A stretch of 64,000 bases of DNA from contig JAYKXP010000076.1 of assembly GCA_037176845.1 (NCBI GenBank), positions 1 to 64,000 of the forward strand, given 5' to 3'. The position numbers were made by a program, and so were the translations under genes. Below, piece after piece: positions 2,400-57,302 of the stretch (its first letter is position 1; every line of letters begins with the position of its first letter). Under the pieces are notes generated by a model. The model searched no databases. It had not been told where the DNA came from and was given only the letters and a program-made list of their open reading frames with translations. Origin of the DNA: Paramarasmius palmivorus (lineage: Eukaryota > Basidiomycota > Agaricomycetes > Agaricales > Marasmiaceae).

Positions 2400-2439
2400 G
2401 AGAGAAACAGCCGCAGTGAAGCAGCAGTGAAGCAGCAGT

Positions 2440-2525
2440 TAGCGTGAGAAAATGAAGTGAAAAGTGCAACAACCACGCCCCGGCAGACCTGGTTGTTGCA
2501 CTTTTCACTTCATTTTCTCACGCTA
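2440..2525. repeat. Perfect 36-bp inverted repeat (hairpin), copy 1
   Basis: Arms 2440-2475 and 2490-2525 are exact reverse complements, with a 14-base GC-rich loop between them. The left arm starts TAGCGTGAGAAAATGAAGTG. It lies about 40 bases upstream of the proposed dioxygenase-like start and about 30 bases before the 160-bp tandem repeats, so it sits in the presumed regulatory gap between two minus-strand genes. It may be a cruciform-forming regulatory or replication signal, or two fused ends of a small older element. Confidence 0.9.
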
Positions 2526-2557
2526 GTTGTTCTGCTCTAGTCACTTCATACACCAAC

Positions 2558-3666
2558 ATAGTGAGTTCACATTTACCTCTTTTGTTATGGCGATGTTATC
2601 AATCAATTTAGCAACCTCAAATGCCCCTGCTTCCAACCCAAGTATGTCCCAGTTTGCTCAGGGTCAAATGCTGGAGATAGGTGGTAAATTTCGGAGATTT
2701 TTGGGGAAGATATCGACGTAGTGAGTTCGCGTTTGTCTCGTTCGTTCAGCTGATGTTACCAATCGATTCAGCGACCTCAAATACCCCCGCCGCCAACACC
2801 AGTATGCCCCCGTTCGCTCAGGTTCAAATGCTGGAGATAGGTGGTAAATTTCGGAGATTTTTGGGGAAGATATCGACGTAGTGAGTTCGCGTTTGTCTCG
2901 TTCGTTCCGCCGATGTTACCAATCGATTCAGCGACCTCAAATACCCCTGCCGCCAACACCAGTATGCCCCCATTCGCTCAGGTTCAAATGCTGGACATAG
3001 GCGGTAAATTTCGGAGATTTTTGGGGAAGATATCGACGTAGTGAGTTCGCGTTTGTCTCGTTCGTTCCGCCAATGTTACCAATCGATTCCGCGACCTCAA
3101 ATACCCCTGCCGCCAACACCAGTATGCCCCCGTTTGCTCAGGTTCAAATGCTGGACATAGGCGGTAAATTTCGGAGATTTTTGAGGAAGATATCAACGTA
3201 GTGAGTTCGCGTTTGTCTCGTCTGTTCCGCCAATGCTACCAATTGATTCAGCGACCTCGAATACCCCTGCCGCCAACACCAGTATGCCCCCATTCGCTCA
3301 GGTTCAAATGCTGGACATAGGCGGTAAATTTCGGAGATTTTTGAGGAAGATATCAATGTAGTGAGTTCGCGTTTGTCTCGTTCGTTCAGCTGATGTTACC
3401 AATCGATTCAGCGATCTCAAATACCCCCGCCGCCAACACCAGTATGCCCCTGTTCGCTCAGGTTCAAATGCTGGATATAGGCGGTCAAAAATCTTGGGGG
3501 AAGACGTTGAGGTAGTATGTTAGCTTTTACACCAATCATTTTATTGATGTTACCAGTCAATGTAATGACTTCAAATATTCTATTTTTCAACCTAAATACG
3601 TCTCTTGTTGTCTAAGTTCAAATGCTAGAGATACATAGCCATTACGTTTCGGATCAGGTTTCGGAG
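2558..3666. repeat. Tandem array of about seven 160-bp units, copy 1
   Basis: Units begin with (G/A)TAGTGAGTTC at 2558, 2718, 2878, 3038, 3198 and 3358, exactly 160 bases apart, then a shortened unit ends at 3511 and a degenerate seventh runs to about 3666. The four central units are nearly identical; the outer ones have diverged, as is usual at array edges. The period is not a multiple of three, and no unit stays open in one frame across the array, so the short ORFs in it are not genes. Each unit contains TTCAAATGCTGGA and AAATTTCGGAGATTTTTG. The array lies between the hairpin and the 3' end of the integrase gene. Confidence 0.92.
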
Positions 3667-3726
3667 AGTATTAGATAGGCAAATGGTCTTGACAAGGAAT
3701 TCAATAATAATAAACAATTAGCAAGT

Positions 3727-5596
3727 CTAGTCCATTTCTTCGTCGTCATCATCTGAAAAGCGATCAACGTAGGTATCTATTAAGTCCTCCTCCCACTCGG
3801 GTAGGCCGACTGCAGGACCAAGCCCGCCGTTCACACCTCCAAGATAACATTCGCCTTCGTCATCAGCCAAACCCTGATACACTGCAATCTCCTTCTGTAG
3901 TTGCTCAGCTGAGTAGTCCTCTTCATCTTCTTCATAGGGTAGCAGAGTCATCTGACCCACTGTAGGTTGCTGCTCCAGACGCAGAAGTAGATCCATGTAG
4001 ATCTTCCATACGTTATCCCGAGAAACCTCTGGTTTACCGAGAGAGGTATATATGGCTTCAATTTCTACCTCGAACTCTTTAGGAACCAGCTCGAATACTT
4101 GGTGCTGTGGGGGCGCATAAATGGCTTCCGCATCTTGTAGAATAGTATTTGTTGGATCAATTCTGAGCTGGAAGAGATAGTAGGCATTGGTCAGATTTGT
4201 TTTGTCGGTAAAATGATTGACGTGCCTTGAAATTAATGAACCCATATTCTTCGGGATACTCATCCATATCAGCTGGTGAGCCCCCCTGTGGCGTTATCTT
4301 ATGTTTCTGATGGCGCTTTCGAGTATTGTTGATACGGTCGGCGTAGGCGTCTAATTCTGCTTGTAGCCAAGGTATGAAAAGCCATTTGAAAACATTACTA
4401 GTAATTCATTGTTGCTGAACGTTTCATCTAAGAAAAATAAACAATACAACGCTTACTATTGCAAGGGATCGCTCCTGTCATATCTAATCCCCAGTTGAGG
4501 ATAGCGTTCGGGTGCCTCCAAGATGTCTTCAAAACCGGGGGTCCAACGTGTACGAAGGTTGGACCAGACAATCTCTGGGGGTATGTTCTTCTTGTCTCTT
4601 TTCCATCGATGCTGGAGCGTACCGACTAAGCCCGGGTCCAGAGATTGTCGGATATAGGAGTGCGCTTTCGCTAAGGAGAAATTCTCCGTCCCAGGATCAC
4701 CCTGCGTAACTAGGCAGGTATCTGAGTATAGTAACTACATTAGACCAATTGGAATATATGATATTAGGGAGTACTTACATCCAAGACGCCTAACAGTTTC
4801 CAGATAATATCGAACGATAAGTCTTGGGTTTCGATTGGAATGCCATACTTTGAGCCATTTGATATTGCCCAGAAAAGGATCCACGGCAGTATGAAGCCCC
4901 AAACCATACCGTTTCCACTTGTCATGCTGATCAACACACCACAAATCATTGCCACCTGCTGCCCAGAAGCGCTTTCTCCGCAGTCGTCTATGCCGCCTTT
5001 GTCGAACTAAATCCTTCTCGTAACGATGAAAATAGTCCTCAACAGTTCGTCTGAAAAGGCTTTTTAATTGAGGAGCTCTTCCCAAGGCGCTTGAAACGTA
5101 CCGGGAAACCCGTTTTTGCCGCTCTGTCCACAACAGATTAATGATGTCTTGTCGTCCAGCCTTAGGATACTGTTGCCGGAGGACGACCATATCCTCTGTA
5201 ATTGATTCCAAGGTGTGGCCTATTGAATGCTGTTCGTCAATATATGAAATGGACAAGGTAGGAAAATAATACCCTGTTGACGCGTTCCAAGCAGCCCGAG
5301 TTCTTTGCGTATTTGGCGAAATTTGGTCAATCTAGGGGAGGAACAGTTATCGCATGGTCCTGCCAGAACAAGTGGGATCTCCAATGCGCCTTACCCTAAG
5401 CCATATTGCTGAGTATCGATGTGCCTAGCTAGAAGACGATCAAGGATTTGTCGTTCAGTGAGATGTTTGCGTTTCCAAAGGGATTTGAGAGGCGCTTGGA
5501 AAGATTCAAGAGGCGCTACAAAATGTTTGAGTAAGTCTTGGCTTTAAAGGGTTGGAACAAGTGAGGCTCACGATTGGGCTTATGTTGGTTGGGCAT
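3727..5596 (-). CDS. DDE integrase-core protein (candidate transposase), copy 1
   Basis: Seven exons can be joined: 5596-5572, 5515-5395, 5331-5273, 5219-4779, 4721-4457, 4397-4226 and 4167-3727. Together they give 1,524 nt, an open frame of 507 residues. The integrase core shows the first catalytic Asp in WCVDQHDKW, the second in LVTQGDPGTEN, and a Glu 41 residues later in NIPPEIVWS. The segment after it (VFKWLFIPWLQ, then IYAPPQHQVFELVP) is typical of the integrase-core family widespread in Agaricomycetes. The last intron (4225-4168, 58 nt) has a GC donor and a CTGAC branch-like motif; without it the frame stops. The acidic C-terminus ends in SDDDDEEMD. The gene is divergent from the alpha-kinase. 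As the only recombinase-like gene in the element, it is the likely transposase. Start and exon 1 are the least certain parts. Confidence 0.85.
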
Positions 5597-5781
5597 CTAA
5601 AAAGAAAACATAAATCTGCGATGAGCGGGAAGAAGAAAGAAAAGAAAATGATTCGATATGGAGTCCTGACTCAGCAACTTCAGAGGATGGGCTGTCGGAT
5701 AAAAAAACAGGCAAAGACCGGATATATTTTCTCTGTCTCTTCCATCTTCTCAATCTCCTGCTGTGAACACGGCGATATAAT
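5597..5781. promoter_or_regulatory. Divergent promoter region between integrase and alpha-kinase, copy 1
   Basis: The 185 bases between the two proposed start codons are the only upstream space for both genes, so they should be transcribed from one bidirectional region. No convincing TATA box could be fixed. The gap is conserved base for base in copy 2 (53945-54129). Confidence 0.5.
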
Positions 5782-8689
5782 ATGGACCCTGTTCAATTCA
5801 CCAGTGACCAACGAGCAGAGAAGGCATTTCCATGCCAATCTAGCAGCTGCAGAGAGATGATACAGGCAGACGAAAAATATTTCTTCGTCGGAAATGGGAC
5901 CAAAATCAAGATGGTCTGCACCAAGTGCAATGATCGTTATAAACGTCAAGCCACAGTAGCAAGAGAAACCTATCAAAGTAAGTATTACAACCTATTCCAA
6001 AGGCAAGATTGGCTTCTGACTTTGACGTCGTATAGGAGCAATTCCAGCATTGCAACCAACAGCTAACAAAAACACCGACGGTGAGTTCAGACTCAAAAAA
6101 TGAGAGGAGTAATTAAGCTTACAAGAATGTAAATGTTCTCAAAGCAAACGTGCAATTGGGAAGATCGTTGTTCACCCCAGCTGCTCCTGCTTTATCCTCT
6201 GGATCATCGTTGGGTCGGACATCACAGGAAGCTCCACCTGCTTTAATGTTACCTCCACCAGTGCCTAAAGTTTCTCGCTACCCAACCGCTGCAAGTAATC
6301 ACTCCGGCATGCGTCCCAATCCAAAGGTTATATCAGAGATGGTGATAGCGTCCCACAAGAAAGGTGCGTGGGTATTTTTTGGATGCACGCAGATGAATGA
6401 TGCGGTTTACGTGTAGACACCCACAAATTCTACCAGAACAAGGTTGTTCCCATCAGCTCGACTGCTCATCATGGCCCAGCAATCAATTTATACGCTTCGT
6501 CATCATCTGGAGTACACCCTCTCGCTCGCCTTCCTGCTACCGGCTATAGTAGAGATCATAAATTCTATGAGGAGCAGAAGAGTGTTTATCAGAGAGCAGC
6601 CTATGCAAAAGGGGGCGATGTATTGCCAGTCAGGCTGACTTTGGGTCATGGAGTCTTAGGAAAACCTGGAGTCTTTATCGAGCTATCGGTACGTTTGATA
6701 TTTCTTTCTCCTGGTGCGCTATTTTAATTCAGGTGTGTTGGTAGGAACTCTCCGACTTAAAGCCCCAGTTTGATGCTCATGCGACTATTCCTGAAATCCG
6801 GAGGGAGGCTATGAAATACGCTATCACCCGACTACAGGCTCATGGGGTGCAAATCTCAGAATACCAAGATTTCGTTTACGAGTGGAATACCGATAACTTC
6901 AGCCTTCGCGACATCACTATAAACGGCACAAAACAGTATGGTTCAGGGGTTGACCTTGATACGGAGGAAGTTGCAAAGCAGTATGGGTTAAGCAGGCCTT
7001 ATCTCTTGAACGTCCACGGAAAGATAGTCACAAAGGGAAAGAATGGGGACACGAAGTGGGAGCCAAACAAGAAGACTGGATGCGTGCTTCGAGTCTCAAT
7101 CCGCGGCGCTGATTGGGAGCAGTTTGTTGATGCTGTGGAGCAGTATCGGGTATGCATCTTGCTAGCCTCTCATACCAACTCTGTACTCAAGTTTATTGTA
7201 GGAGGAGCAAGAACAGAGTTCCACCGCTATGGCCCGTACGATGTCAAAGCAACTTTCCAACAATTTTGTCTCAAGTTCTGCCCAAGAGGTGTCTATTTTG
7301 ACGTCAGGAAAGAGAGCAAGAAGCGTGCGTTGCCTTACTCACCTTACAGTTCCTAGATATTGACTTCTCACTCAACAGGATTCATTAGCTAAGACTCCAC
7401 CTCGCAACGCAATCCGTTTGCCACCCATGTGGAAGTCACCGCAACAGCACGTTGTAGAAGAAGGACTGGCACAGGGAGGACGCATGGAAAATAAGCCAGT
7501 AGTACCTAACGGTGTGTTATCTATTAGTGTTGCAATTGTAGCAACGTGAGTCTAACGTAAAACCAGATGTTCCATTTGCGATTCAGGGACTTTTTGCGAT
7601 TATTCCTCAACTCGATATTCAAGTCATACTCAGCAACAAAAGCCTGCAGCGGCTAGATCTCTCTAATCACATAGTGGGGCCAGCGATGCTGATGGTGAAC
7701 TTTGGTTCTGGTGAATCAGAACTGGGCATAGGTGCATTCAAGACGGCGCACAAAGGTCGACTGTCTTTGCTTGGCGAGTTCGACAAGGAGAGGTTTCCTG
7801 GAATCGACTATTTGCTCGATAGAAAAGGCGAAGTATGTGTGAAGCAGTTTTACACTCATAAACAGAAGTACGTGTGTGGTAGCTTTATCTTCAGGCTGGC
7901 TACTGATTTATAGTTGTAGCGGTCAAGGACATCAGGTAAAAGTGAGGCTCGAAAAGGATTTGGAGTACAACAAGATTCAGATGGAGGCCAACGTTCATTA
8001 CTGGAGTGCAAGTCTCATAAACATGGGGTACTCTTATGCTGCAGCATGTCAAGCGGACGCCAGTACGTATATTAATATAATCTTGATTGAGCGAAAGCTG
8101 ACGGATAAATAGCTTGGCCTGTACCCTTCAGCGACATCCCTCAACTACGATACGTCGCTGCAGGAGTGTTTTTGGTATTGAAAGAGGGTTCAAACGAGCT
8201 CAAGCGCCTGAATGGTGCTCAAGTTTCTCGCTCCTTTCTGATTGAGGAAGTAATTCCTGGTGACGACTTTGTCAAGTATGTTCACAACTCTTGTGCAACT
8301 CCGGAGATAGGACCAGAAGACTCCGACTTTCCAAAAGCTGAATTCCTGTTGGCAATGCAGCATGTGCAATACGAAAAGCTGTACCGTACAGTCTACGTGT
8401 CGGACTTTCAGGGGAGCGGAAATCTTCTGACAGACGCTCAAGTGATGACATCGCCGTACGTGTACTCCATGACATCATCTGCGCCAATCTCATCCGCAAA
8501 CACAGTGCCCTCGTCGAAGAGAATACTTCTATGTTTGGTGATGGAAATGTGGATGTGGCTTTCAAAAACTTTCCAAGACAGCACGTTTGCAACCCCTGGT
8601 GTCGTTGGTTTGGGTTTAATGACTTTGTCTTTGATGACTTGTATTCTGAGACGCCTCGGGACTCATGCTTTAGAAAACCCAAGGTCTAA
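5782..8689 (+). CDS. Alpha-kinase (atypical protein kinase) with N-terminal Cys-rich segment, copy 1
   Basis: Eleven exons (5782-5977, 6036-6080, 6145-6363, 6417-6688, 6745-7149, 7202-7324, 7379-7511, 7567-7867, 7920-8062, 8113-8455, 8506-8689) total 2,364 nt and give a continuous frame of 787 residues. The N-terminus has a possible zinc site, CQSSSC followed by CTKC. The C-terminal third is an alpha-kinase domain: GAFKTAH in the nucleotide-binding region, the Lys in VCVKQFY, then QHVQYEK, VSDFQG and LTDAQVMT in the catalytic region. The closing HVCNPWCRWFGF is the zinc-binding hallmark of the family. Alpha-kinases phosphorylate Ser/Thr, often in helical contexts; the substrate here is unknown. 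Alpha-kinases are strongly expanded in some Agaricomycetes. It lies between a divergent integrase and the right inverted terminus, so it behaves as cargo of the transposon. All key residues are present. Confidence 0.9.
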
Positions 8690-8921
8690 CGTGTAGCAAG
8701 TTTAACTATATTGTAACCTCCCATCCAAATGCTACTAATATTGATTTTATAACATTGAAATGACACTCTTGAACTTGAATCAGCAAATTATTTGTGGGCA
8801 AGCACATATTCAACAAGTCTTGGGCCGAGCGGCACAGGATGGGGAAAATAATATTGTTATTTCTCGACTGAATTTGTTTTATCTGAGTCTCTGGGGTCCT
8901 AGCCCAATTTGATCCCATCAT

Positions 8922-8948
8922 CTGAGCATGACAGTCCGGCCTTCCATA
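8922..8948 (-). repeat. Right terminal inverted repeat, copy 1
   Basis: Read on the minus strand from 8948 it begins TATGGAAGGCCGGACTGTCA and continues to 27 bases, matching the right end of copy 2 exactly and the left end of copy 2 with one mismatch. Confidence 0.9.
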
Positions 8949-11329
8949 GGAATCAAGGGCAGGTTCAAATATGATCGCGTCCGGGCTGAAAATTTTTCGT
9001 TCGGCAAAACGATGAGGTCGTAATATATGGTGGAAAATTGGAATATCTGGAATGTTACTCCGCACTTGTCCACGTCACACCTGGACTGCGAGGGTCAAGC
9101 TTTTGAAGACTGTCCTCCATTGTAGATCTGGGCGAGAAAGAAAGGGGAGGGTGGAGGTGACGTTCAAGACAGGATGTGGGGAAGCGGAAGCAAATGATTA
9201 AGGAGCCGCGGTCTTTACGGACGCAGGGTTTAGAGGGGTTGAGCTACTAACACTACTTACAAGTCTCACTATGCTCGGGTGATATTGCTGCTCATACGGA
9301 GAATGAAGGAGCAGTCGTCCACTTAAGTCGTCGATGTCGGCAATCTTGAATATGCGATCCATGGAATTTTCGATAGACGTGAATGCGGCGGCGGCCGGAA
9401 CCTAGGCCTCATCCGAGTCTCTGAGCGAGACATCTCGCTCAAGGTGTCTGTGGCATGTTGGCCCCCTTTTCTCGAAAATTTTCGTTTAGACCACAACGAG
9501 CGCTATCGGGGAAGCAGAAATCATCAGGAGTTTCCCCAGTGAGGAAAAATAATGATGCTAACAACTAGACCTTGGTGAATATTCTATCAGGTCAAGTGGG
9601 TAACCTCCACTGGCACACGTTAAGAACTACAGCTCAACAGGTTCATGGTTCCACCGTTCTGTAGCGAAAATCGATGCGTCAGTAAGAGCCAGAGCCACTC
9701 TAGTGCGACGGCAACGTACGGACAAAAAATTAAGACACAAATAGATATTCTGCAGACGAAGCCCGTTAGAGATGCGTCTCAGAAACGTTAGACTTGATGA
9801 TAGGAGTATGCAAACGTTGATGTTGGATACAATGTTAGGTGGCAATTTCAGAATCTCATACTAGGACTGAAGAATCATTAGAATTGTGCGACAGTAGAGC
9901 GTGTATAGGAGAGTGTCATGTGCGAGATCGGATACTGACTTCGATGAAAATAGACCGTTTCCCCGCCGGTTCTTCAGAGTGTTTTGGATCTTTTAAAATG
10001 TCCAAAAGGGGGCTGTTTTCCAGAACGCCTCTGGAATTATATCCGTTTTGCACAACTCCTCGGAATCACGGCGTACGCTGATCAAGGAATTGGGTGGGGA
10101 CCTGCAATTACTGCAGCGGGGAGAAAAAGACATGTATACAAAATTATCAATTATCAGCTGTAAAAAGTCCAAGGGCTTAAAGAGCGATGAAGCATGCGTA
10201 ACCTGAAGAGCGTTTTGGTCTCAGTATGAAGATGAGATCGCAGTCCTGGTATGGCCCGTTGCGCGTTAAGACTCCAAGTGTATCCCCCGAACCCGACTGA
10301 CGATGAGCGCATTGTATGTTGCAGACGGTCGATCCGAAAGTACGCGACTGAACTGGTTACGATAACAAATGCCAATTCAGGCAAAGGTTGCATTCCTTGG
10401 AGACAGCGCGAGCGCGTGGCGCATCCATCAACGATAGTGTTGTTGGCCGAAAGATGAAGAGGGGCACTGGAATGTCGCAAGAGACGTTGATTATCGGAAC
10501 TGGCCAGAGTGAAAAGCTGTACAGACCTTTGAAAAGTTGCCGTTCCCCCAAACAGGTATGTATGACAGACGTCAATATGCACCCAAATCCTATCATACCC
10601 TGAACCTGTGGAAACCTAATGTTAGCAGACATGGGGAAATACCTGAACGCATAACGTACAGAAAAGTAAGTTGGGACATTCTACTGGCCGTTGAATGAGA
10701 ATGCAGCATGCTATCGAGCCCAGATCGTCAGATTTTTTACTTCACTTGATCCGGGCTAACGCGGCGACATCCTATGAGTTGGGTGAACGAGGCCAGTGCA
10801 AGTTTTTTCGTGGTCTTCTTCGACGTTTGCCCCCAAGGGAGATAGCAACCTGATTGTTTAAACAACTTGCGATATCACTGAACCAAAAGATATAACGCCC
10901 AGATAGTCGATTCTTTGAGATTCGACGCCTTGAAACGGGTGCTGCGAGCAGAGAAGATGACGGTAAGAAGGGGCCCGAAAAGGTGAAAATTTCCCATCAC
11001 TAGCGTGACACTTACTGACACCGAGACTACACCGTCCACTTGCTCTAGTCCACCACGTTGGAATGTAATTAAAGATAAGGAGATGAAATGGGAGAATTAT
11101 ACTGTAAGTTTCCCGATTGATATCGACGACAATATCAGCTAATCCCATGCAGATTTCAGCAAGTCGGCGTAACGATGGACAGAAATCTGTATGTCTACCA
11201 CCTCAAAATCATCTTCAAGGACTACTTTGTTTGCTGGGTATCATTGTATAATCTCTTGCACCGATTTTGCTAACTTGTAATACATTATAGGCTACATTGT
11301 GTCAATCATTCCCAACAATATGCGTTGCT
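8949..11329. other. Intergenic, no recognisable gene
   Basis: Only short overlapping open frames (up to about 140 codons) occur, on both strands, without recognisable motifs or convincing splice structure. No RNA gene or repeat was found by eye. It separates the right end of transposon copy 1 from the 3' end of the peroxiredoxin/MLKL-like gene. Confidence 0.5.
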
Positions 11330-16950: not shown

Positions 16951-17119
16951 TGTAGTAGGGGGACCGGGGGTCGGGACGGACCTTTCCGGCATGTTTGGCA
17001 GTGTTTAGCATAGGCTTTGGGCGCGTAGTCTACATTCCGTGTACGTAGTTAGCTAGCAGTATTCCACCACCAGCTTGGTCTTTGGCATTGCGTTGGCCAG
17101 ACCGCCCGGACCTGCCCCA
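16951..17119 (+). repeat. 5' LTR of the gag-only element
   Basis: 169 bases, TGTAGTAGGGGG to CTGCCCCA, identical on reading to 18334-18502. Confidence 0.93.
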
Positions 17120-18333: not shown

Positions 18334-18502
18334 TGTAGTAGGGGGACCGGGGGTCGGGACGGACCTTTCCGGCATGTTTGGCAGTGTTTAGCATAGGCTT
18401 TGGGCGCGTAGTCTACATTCCGTGTACGTAGTTAGCTAGCAGTATTCCACCACCAGCTTGGTCTTTGGCATTGCGTTGGCCAGACCGCCCGGACCTGCCC
18501 CA
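18334..18502 (+). repeat. 3' LTR of the gag-only element
   Basis: 169 bases, direct repeat of 16951-17119, followed at once by the ATGC target duplication. Confidence 0.93.
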
Positions 18503-45180: not shown

Positions 45181-45186
45181 GAGTCT
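45181..45186 (+). repeat. Target-site duplication, left (GAGTCT)
   Basis: Directly precedes the left inverted repeat and equals 57297-57302, directly after the right one. Confidence 0.85.
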
Positions 45187-45213
45187 TATGGAAGGCCGGA
45201 CTGTCACGCTCAG
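45187..45213 (+). repeat. Left terminal inverted repeat, copy 2
   Basis: 27 bases; matches the reverse complement of 57270-57296 except for C versus T at position 21. Confidence 0.88.
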
Positions 45214-45425
45214 TTAGGACGTATCTACCTTGGTACAGTTAACAAACATGGAAATGGGACCCCGGACACCATGTTTTGGATTTTTTTTTTTGGTAACGAC
45301 GCGCCGCCAGTGGCAAGTTGCAAGTTGAATTGGACACTGGTAAAGTATTGTAGATAAAATGAAGATACATACTGGAAACTTGAATTATACCTCCGGTCTG
45401 GCTACTTTGGATCTACTGTCTTATC

Positions 45426-47610
45426 TCAATTTAAATCATCCTGCACAAAGGTCATAGAAGCCGTGACAGGAATCGGAATATCCAATCCTGTGTGGCCCGA
45501 GAGTGTTAGTTCGCCTACTCGCGACTCAAGTTCCTCAGCAATTTCCTTCAGATTGGGGATCTTATCCGTCCAACGTGAGATTTTGCAGAGACAATGTTCT
45601 GCTCCGATAACGTTATCTTGCTTCGCACCCTAATTTATCTCCCTCCATTCCGGTATGCAGGACTTTCCAGATAAGCCTTCAAAAGCATGTAAGAGAAACT
45701 AATACGCATCTTCACTAATCATATTGAAGCCAATCAGCTTCACCTTTGAAGGCACCAAGCTAGCCAAGGCGGCATGAGACATTTTGTGAATTTAGGACAA
45801 TGTTGGGGAAAGGAATAACTGCAAGACAAAGTGCTAGCGATTGACCAGTGTCAGAGCATGTGAGGCACCTATTGAAGCCCGCAATTTTTCCAGCTGATCA
45901 CTTACTCAATCGTTATCTGTCCTGAATTCGCGATTTTGAGAGCACGCGCAATATTGGTGCAATCGAATCAGATCTCCGAGAAACTCCTGTCCATTTCTCG
46001 CATATTGTATTGTCCAATAGGCGGAACACTTGTCTCATAGGGCGTTGTCTAAGCTGCTTTTCGGGGAAATTGTTTCAACCCACGAGTTGTATGTTTGAGT
46101 GTTGCAGAACTTAGCATGTTGGATGGCGGGCCCATACCATCCCCAGCATTCGCATAACGAAAATGCCCTGAGATCTAGCGCCTCAGAGAAACCTTACATG
46201 CTCAGGCGATATCTGAACGATCTGGTCTGCGACATGCCAAGACCTGATTGTGTATCTGGGCACTAAGAAATGTGATGCAGACGTTGCAATGTTGCCGACC
46301 AAAACGAGACCTACTACCCGCCTTCTGTGTAAAAAGGCTAGGAACCGCGATGTTTTTTTATAACTTGACCACCATTTCCATACCAAGAAAATACAAGGTG
46401 TGACATCATATTTGGGGTTTATTGTCGCACACCCTCGGCATATCTCATTCATCAATAACTAAGCTTACCCTGTGCGTTTGGCGGATGGATACAGCATAGA
46501 TCTGATCTGGACTGAGGCAAGTATCTCCCTGTGCGGATATCTATGCCCATGGTAGATTAGCGACATGTAGGTTCTGCAGTATGGCGTCTTGATGCCGTAG
46601 CCCGCCGCGATTTGCAGGGGAGATAGCGCCAATCGCCCGAAGGAAAGATGGCTTCGACCAATATTAATGCTTCACGGGATGTCAAAACTTGACAAAAGCT
46701 AGCCACATCGCCTTTTAGATAGTAGCGAGTGATTGGATTGCTCTGCTGCTTGGGTTAGACCTTTCTACTCCCTGATACTCGTCATCAGACATTCGTCCGT
46801 CCAGCTATAACTCTGTAATATTTCCTTTATGGAATGCATAGCCGAAACACATGCCGCGTCCCAGAACCTGCGACTTCCTGAAGCCCATAATCGAACGTGT
46901 GGAGAGATGACAGTTCTGGATCTTCCCGAATGTTTTTGCAATCCTCTTGACCGACATCTTGAGACAGCGTCATTCCATCGCCCTTACGCCGCCTTTGGAA
47001 GACGAAAGTATCAATTCTGGCGGAGAAGAATATGACTCATCATCCAACCCCTCGGCAAGTGCTGAAGGATTGCCCCTCGTACAACAGTCCCTCAGAAGAT
47101 ACACTTGTATCTCGCGCTTCCTGGCACTTTGTTTTCTTCCAGGCTCTTGGTCGAAACCGTTTGGCTCTGAACTTCCGAAGTAAGCATTGCAAGGAACTCA
47201 AATGAAGCGCGTCGTTCAAGGACCTGGTTTGCAGCAGGGGAGAGCGTCATCTCCACCATCGATACATTTTCCTTGAGGGACAAAGGCCCTCTGAAAAGTG
47301 AGAGTCCCTGCGCAACCCATAAGGTTGATGGAATTGGCCGGAGAAAATTGGAGCATCCGGCGGCTTTACCTCTTGACGCCTGCATTGTTGATCGTAAAGC
47401 ATGAGATCTTGCATACAGATCCACCATGGAAAAATTTGCCGGTAATGGTTGCTCAAGAATTATTCGGTCCTTGAACTTAGTCTGTGTTACATATTTAAGA
47501 AGCATTGAGCATTCAAACAAAACGAATATCGAATAAGATGAGAAGAGAGCGGCATTCCTGGCGACGAACTGCAGCGGAGTCCCATAGTTTAAGCGTATAG
47601 CATGGGTGGA
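45426..47610 (-). CDS. Unrecognised multi-exon coding region in the left arm of the transposon
   Basis: Several open exons read leftward: about 47603-47092 (HAIRLNYGTPLQFVARNAAL onward, then LPANFSMVDLYARSHALR), a segment near 46500-46690 (LSPLQIAAGYGIKTPYCRTY), one near 46183-46455, and a last exon from about 45624 (RWTDKIPNLKEIAEELESR) to the stop at 45426-45428. Their borders could not all be fixed, and no family was recognised. A donor near 47695 and an acceptor near 47604 would join the first of these in frame with the chromodomain gene upstream, so this may be the C-terminal part of that protein and not a separate gene. It belongs to the transposon by position; copy 1 of this part lies outside the window. 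Without a second copy its sequence accuracy cannot be judged. Confidence 0.4.
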
Positions 47611-47665
47611 CTGGCACTCTCAAAGGTCTGAGAGAGCAACCTTGGAAGCGAAAACACAGAGCTAA

Positions 47666-50600
47666 TTAGGCGGTACATATTTGATCGACTGGCTCCACGC
47701 TACTTGTTGGGACTCTGAGAGGTGATTTAATCAGCATGCTTGTCCAGGCAAACTGACGATCATTCATCGCAGTATAGCTAGTAATAAATGCTGTAAGATC
47801 GGAATATCCTCCAGAAATGGAGGATCGGTTGGATATGAACCGGTCCTGCAGCTTCTTGAATGTGTCAAGCTCTTTCGAAAGCTTTTCCGCATCAAAAAGC
47901 TTATCCAAGCAGTGTCTGGAAAAGTTTTTGTACCGCTTTGAATCGCAGACTGTTAACGTATCATGAAGACTCCAGCAGCTCTTGTAAGCGCGCAATAGGT
48001 CTTGGGCGTTGCTAGATTGCATAGTATCAGTATATAGCCCTAAGTTCTCAGGAATGCCCAAATCTCACTTCAAATCTGTCTCTGGAATCCACTCGTTGTG
48101 GTCTTCTGAATAATGCTTCCACTGAACCAAGTACTTGTACATTCCGCCATGAAATGCCTAAGGTTTGCCAGTCAGTGGACGTACGGAAACCAAGAATGCA
48201 ACTCACGTGTCCGATAATTGCTTCAATCTCGAACTCAGCATAGGTTCGGGTACCCTCTTCAAATTCCTAATGATAGCTAGGCTTGAATCCATTTGCTTCA
48301 GAATGTGCAAAACCTACTTACCTGCCCTACCATTCCGACTACTTCTGGTTTTTGGCGTAGCTTCTTCTTCGGCTGAATTTCCTTCCCTTCGGAGTTTCGC
48401 TTGCGTCGCTTTCCTGTTAAAGTACCCTCTGTCACTTGCACGTGCAATACATCTTCCGTATCAGACGTTACGTTGTAGGAGGATCTGCGTGCTGGGTAAA
48501 TGCAAAACAACCTTGACTTGTCTCCTGCCGAGAACGATACACCCTGTCGGTGATCCTTGGGGCCTCTGTGCTTCAATACATTCCTCTGGAGCGGCTTCTT
48601 GTTGCCTGTTTTGGCCAAAAGATCCTGCTTCTTGAAGAACTCGTCGGCCCATAATGCCTAGTGCATTACACTCTCGCAATGCCTCACCCATGTCCAGCCG
48701 CCATCCCCGACACATATGCACGTGCGCACTGTGTCTGGATTTAGAACGTCAAACGCATGAAGAATGTATAGATGCACTGTTGAGACGTCATTTGGTTGAG
48801 ATGTCGTTTCTTCTAGATTTCCATTGGTCCCTGACTCGGTGTATTGTATCGTTGTAAAAGGCGCGATGGCATCGAAACCGACAAGAGTCAAGTTTGCTTA
48901 GCGACAAACTGTTTAAAAAGCCTCCATAACCAGCTCTACTTCCAAAAAATGGTCGAATAAACTCCTGCAATTGTCCCACCCATCATAATGTTTTGCCAGA
49001 ACTGAAGGGCTTGACTCGACCGGAAGCACAGGCTATGAGTTCATGGTGGAGATGTAAGCCAAACAAGGCGGGACCATGTAAGCAATATTGCCGTACGCTT
49101 TAAACAGCTTGGTCTGGAAAATATTGAACAAAAGCTAGGTCGTTGACTGCAGCAGCAGCATTCCACAATTCCTGGGCAGTGTTGGCAAGAGGATCTGTCT
49201 CCCATCTCGTCGAGTCGAACATTTACCACGAGGCTCTCCATAGCCTCGGCCTCTCAGTTTTAATAGAGATCTGACGACCGCCATGGAAAGGTTTTCTCCC
49301 ATCAAACACTATGTTGATGAATTCCATATGTCGGAAAAGGGTAATGTGAATGCCGTAGCGAGAGCGAGAAGAAATGAGCCTCCCGCAGCCTTTTTAATCT
49401 GTTATGCTGAGTCAAAACCATACAATTTGACAATATAAGCATTACATACGTTTCGGAAAGGCGTATCATGAGTGGTCTGAGCAATGTTGGTGTTGTGAGA
49501 CAATCTTGAGAATCTGGATGCAGAGACCCTTGCACTCGCCCAATCGACTCGCCCAAGTCAGCTCCGTCATACACATATATGATCGGAATCATTCATTTGA
49601 ACCGATACTCCTGCCGGCCCCTACCCCCTAGTGTGAAGACGTTATTGTCTTGTAGTTGAAAACTTCAACATCTCCCATTCGTACTTCGATATTGAAAGGT
49701 GGAACCGAATGCGTAAAAGGGCGGCCAGAATCTGGAAAACCTCGTGCCATCTGTTTTTTCAAACTTGGGCGTAGACAGTTGCGATACAGGCTTGACTATT
49801 CCAATTCCGTGTCCTTTCTCTATCGTAGTGCCAAGACTGTACGAACCTTCGAACTGTACTCGAGTTTTGGCTGTACCCTTCTTAACTCCAGACCGCTTTG
49901 AACGATCATTTTCCTTCAGTTGCGCATACGCAAAGAGTGGGAGAATGCTCTCCTCAGAAGGTGTTGTTGCTCTATGGCCAAAAGCCAGATCCTTCAATCG
50001 GCTCGCCAAAGGAGCAAGCTCCTTCCACACCTCAGGATAGTGGAGTTCTAGAGAGGACGGCGTATGATAGGCAGCAAATGTAACGGAGCCTTTAAGACCG
50101 ACACCGTTATCTATATCGGTTCGTAATGGCCAGGATGCAGGAGGTGTTATGCAGCCCGGTACGATAGGATAAGAGTATTTCTCTTGCTCAACATCCCATA
50201 TAGCATCTACCTCAGGCGGAACAGCAAGATTGAGCTGATGTTCTCGTTCCTGCTGAATACTGGCTAGGTCTGCCGAGCGTGATGCTACGTAGCACCAATG
50301 GAGCGCATATGATTCGTCTCTAGTCTTTGTCCAGACAGGTGAGGAAGGATATGTATAACCTTGAGGGGGAGTGCGATTGGTTGACATTGGAATTAGTTGA
50401 TTGGGATAGTTATGGGGAATGACAAAGCCTTGAGGAAGTGTATACAAAAAATGTTCTAAGGGAGGGGGTTGCAGCGCTATACTGGCTAAATTGCCATGCC
50501 CATAGGGATTGACCTGCGTCTTCTCAATTTCATCTGAATTTGAGTGAGTAATAGATTACTATCCGCATACTGGGCACTCACTAAGAATGGCCTCCTGATT

Positions 50601-50747
50601 TCCATGCCCCGTATTTGTGCCGAATGTGTTTGTGTCAGACAAAGAAACCTTAGATCCAATTTCAGCCAAAATGAGAAAATAAGACACAGGTTGATTGAAC
50701 ACATACACTGAGTAAGTCCATAACTGCTGAATAGTAGTAGTAGACAA
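47666..50747 (-). CDS. Putative 2OG-Fe(II) dioxygenase-like protein with C-terminal chromodomain, copy 2
   Basis: Exon order follows copy 1 (+48,348): possible start at 50747, a long exon to about 49665 where the frame first breaks, then the H-x-D and TIHGG-type regions, here interrupted by several 1-3 base indels not shared with copy 1. Downstream the frame reopens at 48618 with a basic segment (GKRRKRNSEGKEIQPKKKLR). After an intron two exons encode a chromodomain: EFEEGTRTYAEFEIEAIIGH (48250-48207 region) and MYKYLVQWKHYSEDHNEWIP ending at about 48071, which contains the aromatic cage Tyr/Trp/Trp positions. A helical tail follows (AQDLLRAYKSCWSLHDTL, 48000-47950). The chromodomain should bind methylated histone tails; the dioxygenase assignment is motif-based. 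The indels are probably sequence errors because they scatter over both copies. If real, this copy is a pseudogene. Confidence 0.55.
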
Positions 50748-50787
50748 GAGAGAAACAGCCGCAGTGAAGCAGCAGTGAAGCAGCAGT

Positions 50788-50873
50788 TAGCGTGAGAAAA
50801 TGAAGTGAAAAGTGCAACAACCACGCCCCGGCAGACCTGGTTGTTGCACTTTTCACTTCATTTTCTCACGCTA
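50788..50873. repeat. Perfect 36-bp inverted repeat (hairpin), copy 2
   Basis: Arms 50788-50823 and 50838-50873, 14-base loop, identical to 2440-2525. Confidence 0.9.
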
Positions 50874-50905
50874 GTTGTTCTGCTCTAGTCACTTCATACA
50901 CCAAC

Positions 50906-52014
50906 ATAGTGAGTTCACATTTACCTCTTTTGTTATGGCGATGTTATCAATCAATTTAGCAACCTCAAATGCCCCTGCTTCCAACCCAAGTATGTCCCAG
51001 TTTGCTCAGGGTCAAATGCTGGAGATAGGTGGTAAATTTCGGAGATTTTTGGGGAAGATATCGACGTAGTGAGTTCGCGTTTGTCTCGTTCGTTCAGCTG
51101 ATGTTACCAATCGATTCAGCGACCTCAAATACCCCCGCCGCCAACACCAGTATGCCCCCGTTCGCTCAGGTTCAAATGCTGGAGATAGGTGGTAAATTTC
51201 GGAGATTTTTGGGGAAGATATCGACGTAGTGAGTTCGCGTTTGTCTCGTTCGTTCCGCCGATGTTACCAATCGATTCAGCGACCTCAAATACCCCTGCCG
51301 CCAACACCAGTATGCCCCCATTCGCTCAGGTTCAAATGCTGGACATAGGCGGTAAATTTCGGAGATTTTTGGGGAAGATATCGACGTAGTGAGTTCGCGT
51401 TTGTCTCGTTCGTTCCGCCAATGTTACCAATCGATTCCGCGACCTCAAATACCCCTGCCGCCAACACCAGTATGCCCCCGTTTGCTCAGGTTCAAATGCT
51501 GGACATAGGCGGTAAATTTCGGAGATTTTTGAGGAAGATATCAACGTAGTGAGTTCGCGTTTGTCTCGTCTGTTCCGCCAATGCTACCAATTGATTCAGC
51601 GACCTCGAATACCCCTGCCGCCAACACCAGTATGCCCCCATTCGCTCAGGTTCAAATGCTGGACATAGGCGGTAAATTTCGGAGATTTTTGAGGAAGATA
51701 TCAATGTAGTGAGTTCGCGTTTGTCTCGTTCGTTCAGCTGATGTTACCAATCGATTCAGCGATCTCAAATACCCCCGCCGCCAACACCAGTATGCCCCTG
51801 TTCGCTCAGGTTCAAATGCTGGATATAGGCGGTCAAAAATCTTGGGGGAAGACGTTGAGGTAGTATGTTAGCTTTTACACCAATCATTTTATTGATGTTA
51901 CCAGTCAATGTAATGACTTCAAATATTCTATTTTTCAACCTAAATACGTCTCTTGTTGTCTAAGTTCAAATGCTAGAGATACATAGCCATTACGTTTCGG
52001 ATCAGGTTTCGGAG
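50906..52014. repeat. Tandem array of about seven 160-bp units, copy 2
   Basis: Same units, same order and same edge degeneration as 2558-3666; copy number has not changed between the two elements, which argues for very recent transposition or for assembly copying. Confidence 0.92.
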
Positions 52015-52074
52015 AGTATTAGATAGGCAAATGGTCTTGACAAGGAATTCAATAATAATAAACAATTAGCAAGT

Positions 52075-53944
52075 CTAGTCCATTTCTTCGTCGTCATCAT
52101 CTGAAAAGCGATCAACGTAGGTATCTATTAAGTCCTCCTCCCACTCGGGTAGGCCGACTGCAGGACCAAGCCCGCCGTTCACACCTCCAAGATAACATTC
52201 GCCTTCGTCATCAGCCAAACCCTGATACACTGCAATCTCCTTCTGTAGTTGCTCAGCTGAGTAGTCCTCTTCATCTTCTTCATAGGGTAGCAGAGTCATC
52301 TGACCCACTGTAGGTTGCTGCTCCAGACGCAGAAGTAGATCCATGTAGATCTTCCATACGTTATCCCGAGAAACCTCTGGTTTACCGAGAGAGGTATATA
52401 TGGCTTCAATTTCTACCTCGAACTCTTTAGGAACCAGCTCGAATACTTGGTGCTGTGGGGGCGCATAAATGGCTTCCGCATCTTGTAGAATAGTATTTGT
52501 TGGATCAATTCTGAGCTGGAAGAGATAGTAGGCATTGGTCAGATTTGTTTTGTCGGTAAAATGATTGACGTGCCTTGAAATTAATGAACCCATATTCTTC
52601 GGGATACTCATCCATATCAGCTGGTGAGCCCCCCTGTGGCGTTATCTTATGTTTCTGATGGCGCTTTCGAGTATTGTTGATACGGTCGGCGTAGGCGTCT
52701 AATTCTGCTTGTAGCCAAGGTATGAAAAGCCATTTGAAAACATTACTAGTAATTCATTGTTGCTGAACGTTTCATCTAAGAAAAATAAACAATACAACGC
52801 TTACTATTGCAAGGGATCGCTCCTGTCATATCTAATCCCCAGTTGAGGATAGCGTTCGGGTGCCTCCAAGATGTCTTCAAAACCGGGGGTCCAACGTGTA
52901 CGAAGGTTGGACCAGACAATCTCTGGGGGTATGTTCTTCTTGTCTCTTTTCCATCGATGCTGGAGCGTACCGACTAAGCCCGGGTCCAGAGATTGTCGGA
53001 TATAGGAGTGCGCTTTCGCTAAGGAGAAATTCTCCGTCCCAGGATCACCCTGCGTAACTAGGCAGGTATCTGAGTATAGTAACTACATTAGACCAATTGG
53101 AATATATGATATTAGGGAGTACTTACATCCAAGACGCCTAACAGTTTCCAGATAATATCGAACGATAAGTCTTGGGTTTCGATTGGAATGCCATACTTTG
53201 AGCCATTTGATATTGCCCAGAAAAGGATCCACGGCAGTATGAAGCCCCAAACCATACCGTTTCCACTTGTCATGCTGATCAACACACCACAAATCATTGC
53301 CACCTGCTGCCCAGAAGCGCTTTCTCCGCAGTCGTCTATGCCGCCTTTGTCGAACTAAATCCTTCTCGTAACGATGAAAATAGTCCTCAACAGTTCGTCT
53401 GAAAAGGCTTTTTAATTGAGGAGCTCTTCCCAAGGCGCTTGAAACGTACCGGGAAACCCGTTTTTGCCGCTCTGTCCACAACAGATTAATGATGTCTTGT
53501 CGTCCAGCCTTAGGATACTGTTGCCGGAGGACGACCATATCCTCTGTAATTGATTCCAAGGTGTGGCCTATTGAATGCTGTTCGTCAATATATGAAATGG
53601 ACAAGGTAGGAAAATAATACCCTGTTGACGCGTTCCAAGCAGCCCGAGTTCTTTGCGTATTTGGCGAAATTTGGTCAATCTAGGGGAGGAACAGTTATCG
53701 CATGGTCCTGCCAGAACAAGTGGGATCTCCAATGCGCCTTACCCTAAGCCATATTGCTGAGTATCGATGTGCCTAGCTAGAAGACGATCAAGGATTTGTC
53801 GTTCAGTGAGATGTTTGCGTTTCCAAAGGGATTTGAGAGGCGCTTGGAAAGATTCAAGAGGCGCTACAAAATGTTTGAGTAAGTCTTGGCTTTAAAGGGT
53901 TGGAACAAGTGAGGCTCACGATTGGGCTTATGTTGGTTGGGCAT
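52075..53944 (-). CDS. DDE integrase-core protein (candidate transposase), copy 2
   Basis: Exons 53944-53920, 53863-53743, 53679-53621, 53567-53127, 53069-52805, 52745-52574 and 52515-52075, the exact counterparts of copy 1. The 507-residue frame, the catalytic residues (Asp in WCVDQHDKW, Asp in QGDPGTEN, Glu in NIPPEIVWS) and the GC-AG last intron are the same, so both copies appear able to make an intact protein. No difference from copy 1 was found. It is the only recombinase-like gene between the two inverted termini. Confidence 0.85.
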
Positions 53945-54129
53945 CTAAAAAGAAAACATAAATCTGCGATGAGCGGGAAGAAGAAAGAAAAGAAAATGAT
54001 TCGATATGGAGTCCTGACTCAGCAACTTCAGAGGATGGGCTGTCGGATAAAAAAACAGGCAAAGACCGGATATATTTTCTCTGTCTCTTCCATCTTCTCA
54101 ATCTCCTGCTGTGAACACGGCGATATAAT
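53945..54129. promoter_or_regulatory. Divergent promoter region between integrase and alpha-kinase, copy 2
   Basis: Identical to 5597-5781; shared upstream space of two divergent genes. Confidence 0.5.
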
Positions 54130-57037
54130 ATGGACCCTGTTCAATTCACCAGTGACCAACGAGCAGAGAAGGCATTTCCATGCCAATCTAGCAGCTGCAG
54201 AGAGATGATACAGGCAGACGAAAAATATTTCTTCGTCGGAAATGGGACCAAAATCAAGATGGTCTGCACCAAGTGCAATGATCGTTATAAACGTCAAGCC
54301 ACAGTAGCAAGAGAAACCTATCAAAGTAAGTATTACAACCTATTCCAAAGGCAAGATTGGCTTCTGACTTTGACGTCGTATAGGAGCAATTCCAGCATTG
54401 CAACCAACAGCTAACAAAAACACCGACGGTGAGTTCAGACTCAAAAAATGAGAGGAGTAATTAAGCTTACAAGAATGTAAATGTTCTCAAAGCAAACGTG
54501 CAATTGGGAAGATCGTTGTTCACCCCAGCTGCTCCTGCTTTATCCTCTGGATCATCGTTGGGTCGGACATCACAGGAAGCTCCACCTGCTTTAATGTTAC
54601 CTCCACCAGTGCCTAAAGTTTCTCGCTACCCAACCGCTGCAAGTAATCACTCCGGCATGCGTCCCAATCCAAAGGTTATATCAGAGATGGTGATAGCGTC
54701 CCACAAGAAAGGTGCGTGGGTATTTTTTGGATGCACGCAGATGAATGATGCGGTTTACGTGTAGACACCCACAAATTCTACCAGAACAAGGTTGTTCCCA
54801 TCAGCTCGACTGCTCATCATGGCCCAGCAATCAATTTATACGCTTCGTCATCATCTGGAGTACACCCTCTCGCTCGCCTTCCTGCTACCGGCTATAGTAG
54901 AGATCATAAATTCTATGAGGAGCAGAAGAGTGTTTATCAGAGAGCAGCCTATGCAAAAGGGGGCGATGTATTGCCAGTCAGGCTGACTTTGGGTCATGGA
55001 GTCTTAGGAAAACCTGGAGTCTTTATCGAGCTATCGGTACGTTTGATATTTCTTTCTCCTGGTGCGCTATTTTAATTCAGGTGTGTTGGTAGGAACTCTC
55101 CGACTTAAAGCCCCAGTTTGATGCTCATGCGACTATTCCTGAAATCCGGAGGGAGGCTATGAAATACGCTATCACCCGACTACAGGCTCATGGGGTGCAA
55201 ATCTCAGAATACCAAGATTTCGTTTACGAGTGGAATACCGATAACTTCAGCCTTCGCGACATCACTATAAACGGCACAAAACAGTATGGTTCAGGGGTTG
55301 ACCTTGATACGGAGGAAGTTGCAAAGCAGTATGGGTTAAGCAGGCCTTATCTCTTGAACGTCCACGGAAAGATAGTCACAAAGGGAAAGAATGGGGACAC
55401 GAAGTGGGAGCCAAACAAGAAGACTGGATGCGTGCTTCGAGTCTCAATCCGCGGCGCTGATTGGGAGCAGTTTGTTGATGCTGTGGAGCAGTATCGGGTA
55501 TGCATCTTGCTAGCCTCTCATACCAACTCTGTACTCAAGTTTATTGTAGGAGGAGCAAGAACAGAGTTCCACCGCTATGGCCCGTACGATGTCAAAGCAA
55601 CTTTCCAACAATTTTGTCTCAAGTTCTGCCCAAGAGGTGTCTATTTTGACGTCAGGAAAGAGAGCAAGAAGCGTGCGTTGCCTTACTCACCTTACAGTTC
55701 CTAGATATTGACTTCTCACTCAACAGGATTCATTAGCTAAGACTCCACCTCGCAACGCAATCCGTTTGCCACCCATGTGGAAGTCACCGCAACAGCACGT
55801 TGTAGAAGAAGGACTGGCACAGGGAGGACGCATGGAAAATAAGCCAGTAGTACCTAACGGTGTGTTATCTATTAGTGTTGCAATTGTAGCAACGTGAGTC
55901 TAACGTAAAACCAGATGTTCCATTTGCGATTCAGGGACTTTTTGCGATTATTCCTCAACTCGATATTCAAGTCATACTCAGCAACAAAAGCCTGCAGCGG
56001 CTAGATCTCTCTAATCACATAGTGGGGCCAGCGATGCTGATGGTGAACTTTGGTTCTGGTGAATCAGAACTGGGCATAGGTGCATTCAAGACGGCGCACA
56101 AAGGTCGACTGTCTTTGCTTGGCGAGTTCGACAAGGAGAGGTTTCCTGGAATCGACTATTTGCTCGATAGAAAAGGCGAAGTATGTGTGAAGCAGTTTTA
56201 CACTCATAAACAGAAGTACGTGTGTGGTAGCTTTATCTTCAGGCTGGCTACTGATTTATAGTTGTAGCGGTCAAGGACATCAGGTAAAAGTGAGGCTCGA
56301 AAAGGATTTGGAGTACAACAAGATTCAGATGGAGGCCAACGTTCATTACTGGAGTGCAAGTCTCATAAACATGGGGTACTCTTATGCTGCAGCATGTCAA
56401 GCGGACGCCAGTACGTATATTAATATAATCTTGATTGAGCGAAAGCTGACGGATAAATAGCTTGGCCTGTACCCTTCAGCGACATCCCTCAACTACGATA
56501 CGTCGCTGCAGGAGTGTTTTTGGTATTGAAAGAGGGTTCAAACGAGCTCAAGCGCCTGAATGGTGCTCAAGTTTCTCGCTCCTTTCTGATTGAGGAAGTA
56601 ATTCCTGGTGACGACTTTGTCAAGTATGTTCACAACTCTTGTGCAACTCCGGAGATAGGACCAGAAGACTCCGACTTTCCAAAAGCTGAATTCCTGTTGG
56701 CAATGCAGCATGTGCAATACGAAAAGCTGTACCGTACAGTCTACGTGTCGGACTTTCAGGGGAGCGGAAATCTTCTGACAGACGCTCAAGTGATGACATC
56801 GCCGTACGTGTACTCCATGACATCATCTGCGCCAATCTCATCCGCAAACACAGTGCCCTCGTCGAAGAGAATACTTCTATGTTTGGTGATGGAAATGTGG
56901 ATGTGGCTTTCAAAAACTTTCCAAGACAGCACGTTTGCAACCCCTGGTGTCGTTGGTTTGGGTTTAATGACTTTGTCTTTGATGACTTGTATTCTGAGAC
57001 GCCTCGGGACTCATGCTTTAGAAAACCCAAGGTCTAA
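54130..57037 (+). CDS. Alpha-kinase with N-terminal Cys-rich segment, copy 2
   Basis: The exons of copy 1 shifted by 48,348 give the same 787-residue frame. The Cys-rich N-terminus (CQSSSC, CTKC), the Ser/Pro-rich linker (PPPVPKVSRYPTAASNHS), the catalytic region (VCVKQFY, VSDFQG, LTDAQV) and the zinc-binding C-terminal HVCNPWC are unchanged. The stop TAA at 57035-57037 lies 259 bases from the right end of the element. Preservation of an eleven-exon kinase frame in both copies suggests that it is useful to the element or too young to have decayed; the two cannot be told apart here. Confidence 0.9.
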
Positions 57038-57269
57038 CGTGTAGCAAGTTTAACTATATTGTAACCTCCCATCCAAATGCTACTAATATTGATTTTATAA
57101 CATTGAAATGACACTCTTGAACTTGAATCAGCAAATTATTTGTGGGCAAGCACATATTCAACAAGTCTTGGGCCGAGCGGCACAGGATGGGGAAAATAAT
57201 ATTGTTATTTCTCGACTGAATTTGTTTTATCTGAGTCTCTGGGGTCCTAGCCCAATTTGATCCCATCAT

Positions 57270-57296
57270 CTGAGCATGACAGTCCGGCCTTCCATA
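57270..57296 (-). repeat. Right terminal inverted repeat, copy 2
   Basis: 27 bases, reverse complement of 45187-45213 with one mismatch, identical to 8922-8948. Confidence 0.9.
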
Positions 57297-57302
57297 GAGT
57301 CT
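57297..57302 (+). repeat. Target-site duplication, right (GAGTCT)
   Basis: Follows the right terminus directly and equals 45181-45186. Confidence 0.85.

What the first reader, a model, noticed from the sequence alone, without database searches (positions are those of the whole stretch)
45187..57296. 12-kb TIR transposon carrying an integrase together with an alpha-kinase and a chromodomain/dioxygenase-like gene
Seen directly: 27-bp inverted termini, a 6-bp GAGTCT target duplication, a second independent insertion at 1-8948, and intact integrase and kinase frames. Known: the integrase-core family and alpha-kinases are common in Agaricomycetes. Inference: the kinase and the chromodomain protein are cargo or helpers moved by the integrase. 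I know of no described element with this gene set, so it may be a new family of large fungal DNA transposons, and it would offer a mechanism for alpha-kinase spread in these genomes.
Basis: partly seen in the sequence, partly recalled or inferred. Interest (0 to 1): 0.9.

Follow-up and report, generated by a model that had tools for sequence, protein, structure and literature searches.

The report
Fungal IS3EU transposon carrying three genes
This is a young 12-kb cut-and-paste transposon of a mushroom-forming fungus, of a kind already known to carry an alpha-kinase, that also carries an undescribed chromatin-reader gene with an oxygenase-like domain which may help it escape silencing.

Summary
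Window 45187-57296 is a complete element: 27-bp inverted termini (26 of 27 bases equal), 6-bp target duplication GAGTCT, and an integrase and an alpha-kinase that splice without internal stops. The genome holds 11 copies of the terminus (control 0). Ten of them form five insertions with exact 6-bp duplications: three of the 12-kb element, two of a 2.2-kb form with the same ends. Three copies are identical over the last 7,542 bp. The host is Paramarasmius palmivorus.

It is not a new superfamily. Termini, duplication and integrase type fit IS3EU, and Kojima (PMC12730594) already reports transposase plus opposite-strand alpha-kinase in TET-carrying fungal IS3EU. All 6 alpha-kinase catalytic-domain matches found in this genome lie within 17.6 kb of an integrase-like match.

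New here is the third gene (1,559-aa database model): a domain with an invariant HxD...H motif, whose low-confidence models resemble Fe(II)/2-oxoglutarate oxygenases, then a chromodomain and an unknown C-terminus. No recognisable TET is present. A paralog lies between a distant integrase and a kinase on contig C47; a relative in Marasmius crinis-equi is predicted fused to KDZ-associated domains. I read it as a mobile anti-silencing module; that function is inferred.

The parts
45187..57296 (.). complete element, copy A, 12,110 bp
   Evidence: termini, 6-bp duplication
45181..45186 (+). left target-site duplication GAGTCT
57297..57302 (+). right target-site duplication GAGTCT
45187..45213 (+). 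left terminal inverted repeat, 27 bp, starts TATGG
57270..57296 (-). right terminal inverted repeat, 27 bp, ends CCATA
45413..50721 (-). gene 3: HxD...H dioxygenase-like domain, chromodomain, long C-terminal region. Frames of this copy are broken by what look like assembly errors; it is read from C29 (to the contig end) and from the C55 database model P0001
49501..49520 (-). codons of the HPDSQD (HxD) motif of gene 3
48127..48148 (-). part of the gene-3 chromodomain (GGMYKYLV)
50788..50873 (.). 86-bp palindrome just upstream of gene 3
50907..51833 (.). tandem array, 160-bp unit, 5.8 copies, 3' of the integrase gene
   Evidence: other matches found in the genome: the other copies, C378 and beside the C213 integrase/kinase pair
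52075..53944 (-). integrase-type DDE transposase, 507-aa model, 6 introns
54130..57037 (+). alpha-kinase with N-terminal cysteine cluster, 781-aa model, 9 introns
   Evidence: PF02816 E 1.9e-9 on one exon frame, model
1..8948 (.). copy B, right-hand 8,948 bp of a second insertion, cut by the contig start
8922..8948 (-). right terminus of copy B
8949..8954 (+). right target-site duplication of copy B, GGAATC; same six bases left of C55:221617
1..2373 (-). copy B, N-terminal part of gene 3
2559..3485 (.). copy B, 160-bp tandem array
3727..5596 (-). copy B transposase gene
5782..8689 (+). copy B alpha-kinase gene

Best explanation
The element is an autonomous IS3EU-type DNA transposon of a marasmioid mushroom. 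Shown: the element with its termini, 6-bp duplications, several insertions, and a 2.2-kb form that shares only the ends. Inferred from established knowledge of integrase-fold DDE transposases: the transposase binds the termini and perhaps the internal 160-bp repeats, joins both ends to a target with a 6-base stagger, and also moves the 2.2-kb form in trans. The alpha-kinase and gene 3 travel as accessory genes rather than chance cargo: a kinase recurs beside integrases at three other loci here (C213, C223, C47), and gene 3 recurs at one of these (C47). Inferred function: gene 3 is a chromatin-targeted Fe(II)/2OG oxygenase. Its chromodomain reads a methyl-lysine mark on silenced copies and its oxygenase domain removes a methyl mark on DNA or chromatin, the role proposed for TET/JBP in other fungal IS3EU elements. 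The kinase most likely modifies a host or element chromatin or repair protein to allow expression or transposition.
Against: Both models of the gene-3 domain are poor (mean pLDDT 43.7 and 40.4) and all Z are below 8. No family match supports the oxygenase by sequence: Pfam none, PHROGs none below E 0.1, solved structures none. No rust IS3EU protein was compared, so superfamily membership was not tested by phylogeny. C213 has no recognised termini; none were sought at C47 or C223. The C47 integrase stretch has two stops in the frame read, so that copy may be decayed or have an intron there. C40 carries a gene-3 paralog with no PF24764 match on that contig. C1:234645-235421 is a kinase fragment with no integrase match on C1. 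Most of the 26 integrase-like loci have no kinase match within 20 kb. No expression data.
Confidence: 0.7

Rival explanations
1. The kinase and gene 3 are incidental passengers caught by this young family and have no role in its life cycle.
For: The 2.2-kb form, whose interior does not match the 12-kb element (only 82 and 64-65 end bases do), still has matching 6-bp duplications, so the interior is not needed in cis. The C213 pair has no gene-3 match in the 10 kb searched.
Against: A kinase match lies near integrases of four kinds in this genome, and Kojima reports it in all TET+ IS3EU families. Gene 3 recurs at C47. Between C29 and C130, 9 of 16 gene-3 codon changes are synonymous against about one third expected for transitions, after I set aside the 7 changed codons at the alignment edge (1437-1444); 3 of the 9 are also seen against C55. 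This is only a hint.
Confidence: 0.2
2. The element is composite: an integrase/kinase IS3EU ending near the 160-bp array, fused with a separate gene-3 transposon on its left.
For: C55 and C130 copies break off at element base 5725, next to the array. A gene-3 paralog occurs without an integrase match (C40). At C213 the array lies outside the gene pair, on the kinase side.
Against: The break in C55 and C130 is an LTR retrotransposon at that base, and C378 runs from such an LTR into the array. Left and right termini match over 26 of 27 bases, and the 2.2-kb form keeps both ends.
Confidence: 0.1
3. A Polinton/Maverick-like or Ginger element.
For: 6-bp duplication and a retroviral-type integrase (Polinton features are recalled; duplication).
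Against: No polymerase, capsid or other virus-type domain in the 20 reading frames of copy A scanned or in P0001. The modelled transposase has a single cysteine before its first candidate Asp, two residues from it, so no HHCC motif.
Confidence: 0.02

Closest known systems
TET+ IS3EU transposons of rusts and Tuber indicum (Kojima 2025, PMC12730594)
   Same: 6-bp duplication, TAYGG..CCRTA termini, DDE transposase, alpha-kinase on the opposite strand, an additional gene of oxygenase type or likeness
   Different: No gene lies between transposase and kinase here; the extra gene lies on the far side of the transposase, is a chromodomain protein and is not recognisable as TET/JBP by profile; TIR is 27 bp, not over 30; host is an agaricomycete, for which the sections I read list no TET+ IS3EU
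GingerRoot (as described in PMC10045372)
   Same: 6-bp duplications, mostly TA..TA ends, one clade with IS3EU
   Different: Known from a clubmoss and supposed in animals in that text; an alpha-kinase was not mentioned in the passages I read
KDZ (Kyakuja-Dileera-Zisupton) transposons carrying TET/JBP
   Same: Transposons of the same class of fungi that carry a base oxygenase; a gene-3 relative in M. crinis-equi is predicted fused to KDZ-associated CxC5/CxC6 domains
   Different: Different transposase; 7-bp duplications for Kyakuja (PMC12730594)

Membership tests
IS3EU | 6-bp target-site duplication | tested here: met
   five insertions with exact 6-bp matches, two of them on one contig
IS3EU | TA..TA termini, TAYGG..CCRTA in the TET+ rust families | tested here: met
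   TATGG..CCATA
IS3EU | TIR longer than 30 bp (stated for the TET+ rust families only) | tested here: not met
   27 bp with one mismatch, then divergent; a property of a subset, not of the superfamily
IS3EU | DDE integrase core, first catalytic D 100-300 residues in, no HHCC motif | tested here: met
   PF24764 (below cut-off on the single exon); conserved D/D/E columns; one cysteine only before the candidate Asp. Which of D148/D151 is catalytic was not decided
IS3EU | groups with IS3EU transposases in a tree | not testable with these tools
   Repbase sequences are not held; no rust protein among the 120 listed of 411 hits
IS3EU of fungi with alpha-kinase | alpha-kinase gene opposite to the transposase gene | tested here: met
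   also C213 divergent, C223 convergent, C47 opposite strands
TET+ IS3EU | TET/JBP gene between transposase and kinase | tested here: not met
   185 bp separate the two start codons in A
TET/JBP dioxygenase (gene 3) | HxD...H iron triad | tested here: met
   12 of 12 sequences as a sequence motif; metal binding not tested
TET/JBP dioxygenase (gene 3) | sequence profile of TET/JBP | tested here: inconclusive
   no TET/JBP family among Pfam matches up to E 10 for 12 members; distant members can be missed
TET/JBP dioxygenase (gene 3) | PE-type HxE hallmark | tested here: not met
   all 12 have HxD
Fe(II)/2OG oxygenase fold (gene 3) | double-stranded beta-helix fold | tested here: inconclusive
Polinton/Maverick | family B DNA polymerase and virus-type genes (recalled) | tested here: not met
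   none in 20 frames scanned or in P0001

The most novel reading that the evidence does not exclude
Gene 3 is a new class of transposon-borne eraser: a chromodomain brings a nucleobase- or histone-acting Fe(II)/2OG oxygenase to heterochromatin formed on silenced copies. It has taken the place of TET in agaricomycete IS3EU elements and passes between IS3EU and KDZ transposons, with the alpha-kinase as a second anti-silencing arm.
Probability: 0.3. Interest if true: 0.78.

Novelty: new variant of a known kind. Interest (0 to 1): 0.6.

Why it matters
Alpha-kinases are described as highly expanded in rusts (passage in PMC4469406); the family is also listed in a domain table of a wheat-rust paper (PMC5295586; table heading not seen). 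Here 6 of 6 catalytic-domain matches sit near an IS3EU-type integrase, so such expansions in fungi may be transposon genes counted as host genes; this can be tested in any fungal genome. The element gives a young, clean multicopy family in which to ask what the kinase does. Gene 3 points to a second, non-TET way for fungal transposons to work against silencing.

Tried and rejected
Chance termini: rejected (11 matches against 0 for the control). Reading gene 3 in copy A: rejected, private errors. Long inverted repeats around the C213 pair as its termini: rejected, they begin AGCCGA and have no duplication. Empty-site allele: none, each right flank occurs once. A sequence link of the gene-3 domain to a named family: none in Pfam or solved structures, two PHROGs matches at E 0.12 and 1.1 in one member each. 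NCBIfam: one of the 12 full sequences matched HMG-CoA reductase TIGR00920 at E 4.1e-6; which member and which part was not shown, and the gene-3 fragment itself had no match, so I left it unexplained. The profile of the longer alignment matched solved structures; the 60 shown of 63 matched at its chromodomain stretch. Viral contigs with a gene-3 relative: none confirmed among 18 pattern matches. Foldseek against viral models: nothing at E 0.001; the model is weak. KDZ near the gene-3 paralogs: none seen at C40 or C47:372k in the listed part of 178 matches; the list is cut. Rfam: no match at gathering threshold in the window. C55 as a simple whole copy: rejected, it runs into an LTR retrotransposon at element base 5725 that C130 shares, so C55 is either rearranged or misassembled there. 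The plain Foldseek 'pdb' search was not obtained; the pdb_via second look was used. Kojima's supplementary files and Repbase could not be read here; they may hold agaricomycete IS3EU families.
Full report
WHAT IS THERE. The element at 45187-57296 is bounded by 27-bp inverted termini that agree at 26 of 27 bases and by GAGTCT on both sides. The terminus, with up to 3 mismatches, is found 11 times in the 68.3-Mb genome and its reversed control 0 times. One of the 11 (C233, 3 mismatches) has no partner that I found. The other ten form five insertions with exact 6-bp duplications: A (GAGTCT) and the 2,236-bp C2 element (TACAAG) on single contigs; and three pairs across contigs: C55 left with C76:8948 right (GGAATC), C71 left with C29 right (AAATAG), C89 left with C187 right (AAAGTC). 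Twelve pairings of 3 left with 4 other ends would give about 0.003 six-base matches by chance (12/4096). C71, C29 and C76 break at contig ends; C55, C89 and C187 do not, so rearrangement or misassembly is possible there. C89 matches C2 bases 1-1513 at 96% and C187 matches 1842-2236 at 98%: this pair is the 2.2-kb form. C2 shares only its end 82 and 64-65 bases with the 12-kb element, and its longest stop-free frame is 113 codons. Copies A, the window-start copy and C29 are identical over the last 7,542 bp, so movement was recent, unless conversion or assembly explains it.

HOST. Protein P0001 (VNI00_012157, Paramarasmius palmivorus) lies on a contig of 371,446 bases and P0007 (VNI00_008426) on one of 586,142. 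These equal the lengths of C55 and C29; the host is inferred from that.

A CAUTION ON THE WINDOW SEQUENCE. In element coordinates 500-2500 and 3000-4700, copy A differs from C29, C55 and C130, which agree closely; the changes are spread over all base types with many indels. C71 has such blocks elsewhere, and C55 near base 5000-5700. I read these as unpolished long-read errors, not as decay.

THE SET RECURS. C213 holds a second integrase/kinase pair in the same divergent order, with a 160-bp tandem array like that of our element, in opposite orientation on the kinase side. Matches to the array were found in the three long copies, C378 and C213 (that search skips very common words and scores only its best candidates). 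C378 joins such an array to an LTR like the one that interrupts the C55 and C130 copies, and is probably the other side of one of them. C223 holds a convergent integrase/kinase pair. C47 holds a distant integrase (PF24764 E 1.5e-48; 28% identity to ours over 106 columns; two stops in the frame read), a gene-3 paralog 4 kb on and a kinase match 9 kb further on the other strand: the same trio, with gene 3 where Kojima reports TET. All 6 PF02816 matches found are within 17.6 kb of one of 26 integrase-like loci that I merged by hand, 5 of 6 within 3.9 kb; a random place has a 1.5% chance. Three of the six are copies of one family, and most of the 26 integrase-like loci have no kinase match near. 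The C1 kinase fragment and the C40 gene-3 paralog are exceptions without an integrase match on their contigs.

WHAT IS KNOWN. IS3EU: TA..TA ends and usually 6-bp duplications (PMC10045372, passages and one section read). PMC12730594 (abstract, found passages, sections 18, 23, 25 and legends read) reports TET+ IS3EU in rusts and Tuber, with TET between transposase and opposite-strand alpha-kinase; the parts I read list none in Agaricomycotina. Searches for alpha-kinase with transposon and Agaricomycetes, alpha-kinase with fungi, expansion and transposable, alpha-kinase with transposase, IS3EU with Agaricomycetes, and chromodomain with dioxygenase, transposon and Basidiomycota listed no title or abstract start that describes this trio. 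PMC13297926, PMC8955403 and PMC12411881 were seen as listings only. So transposase plus kinase is known, and the trio with gene 3 is, to these searches, not in print; Kojima's supplement and Repbase were not read.

HOW IT MOST LIKELY WORKS. Integrase-driven cut-and-paste with a 6-base stagger is inferred from structure and family. The accessory genes are retained because they help the element against silencing or in repair: for gene 3, by targeting an oxygenase to marked chromatin. This is inference from domains and from the parallel with TET.

Noticed in passing
window 16951-17119 and 18334-18502: Perfect 169-bp direct repeat 1.2 kb apart outside the element.
   Followed up: no
window 11330-14188: Stop-to-stop frame of 952 aa on the minus strand between the two element copies, not identified.
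   Followed up: no
C55 (L024, L025), C130 (L033, L038), C378 (L064): An LTR retrotransposon with 267-bp LTRs sits at element base about 5725 in the C55 and C130 copies; C378 has an LTR-array junction.
   Followed up: partly
C89:65485 and C187:6560: The two halves of one 2.2-kb non-autonomous insertion with duplication AAAGTC lie on two contigs away from contig ends: a rearrangement through the element or a misjoin.
   Followed up: partly
C40:343028-347381: Paralog of gene 3 spanning most of its length (26-30% identity) with no PF24764 integrase match on the contig.
   Followed up: no
C1:234645-235421: Fragment of a related kinase (up to 84% identity) without an integrase match on the contig.
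   Followed up: no
whole genome: KDZ transposase domain PF18758: 178 matches, a lower bound.
   Followed up: no
C213:10837-12282 (L061:838-2283): Palindrome with 707-bp arms, 98% complementary, beside the second integrase/kinase pair, with 0.8-kb inverted repeats further out at C213:10055-10854 and 20880-21710.
   Followed up: partly
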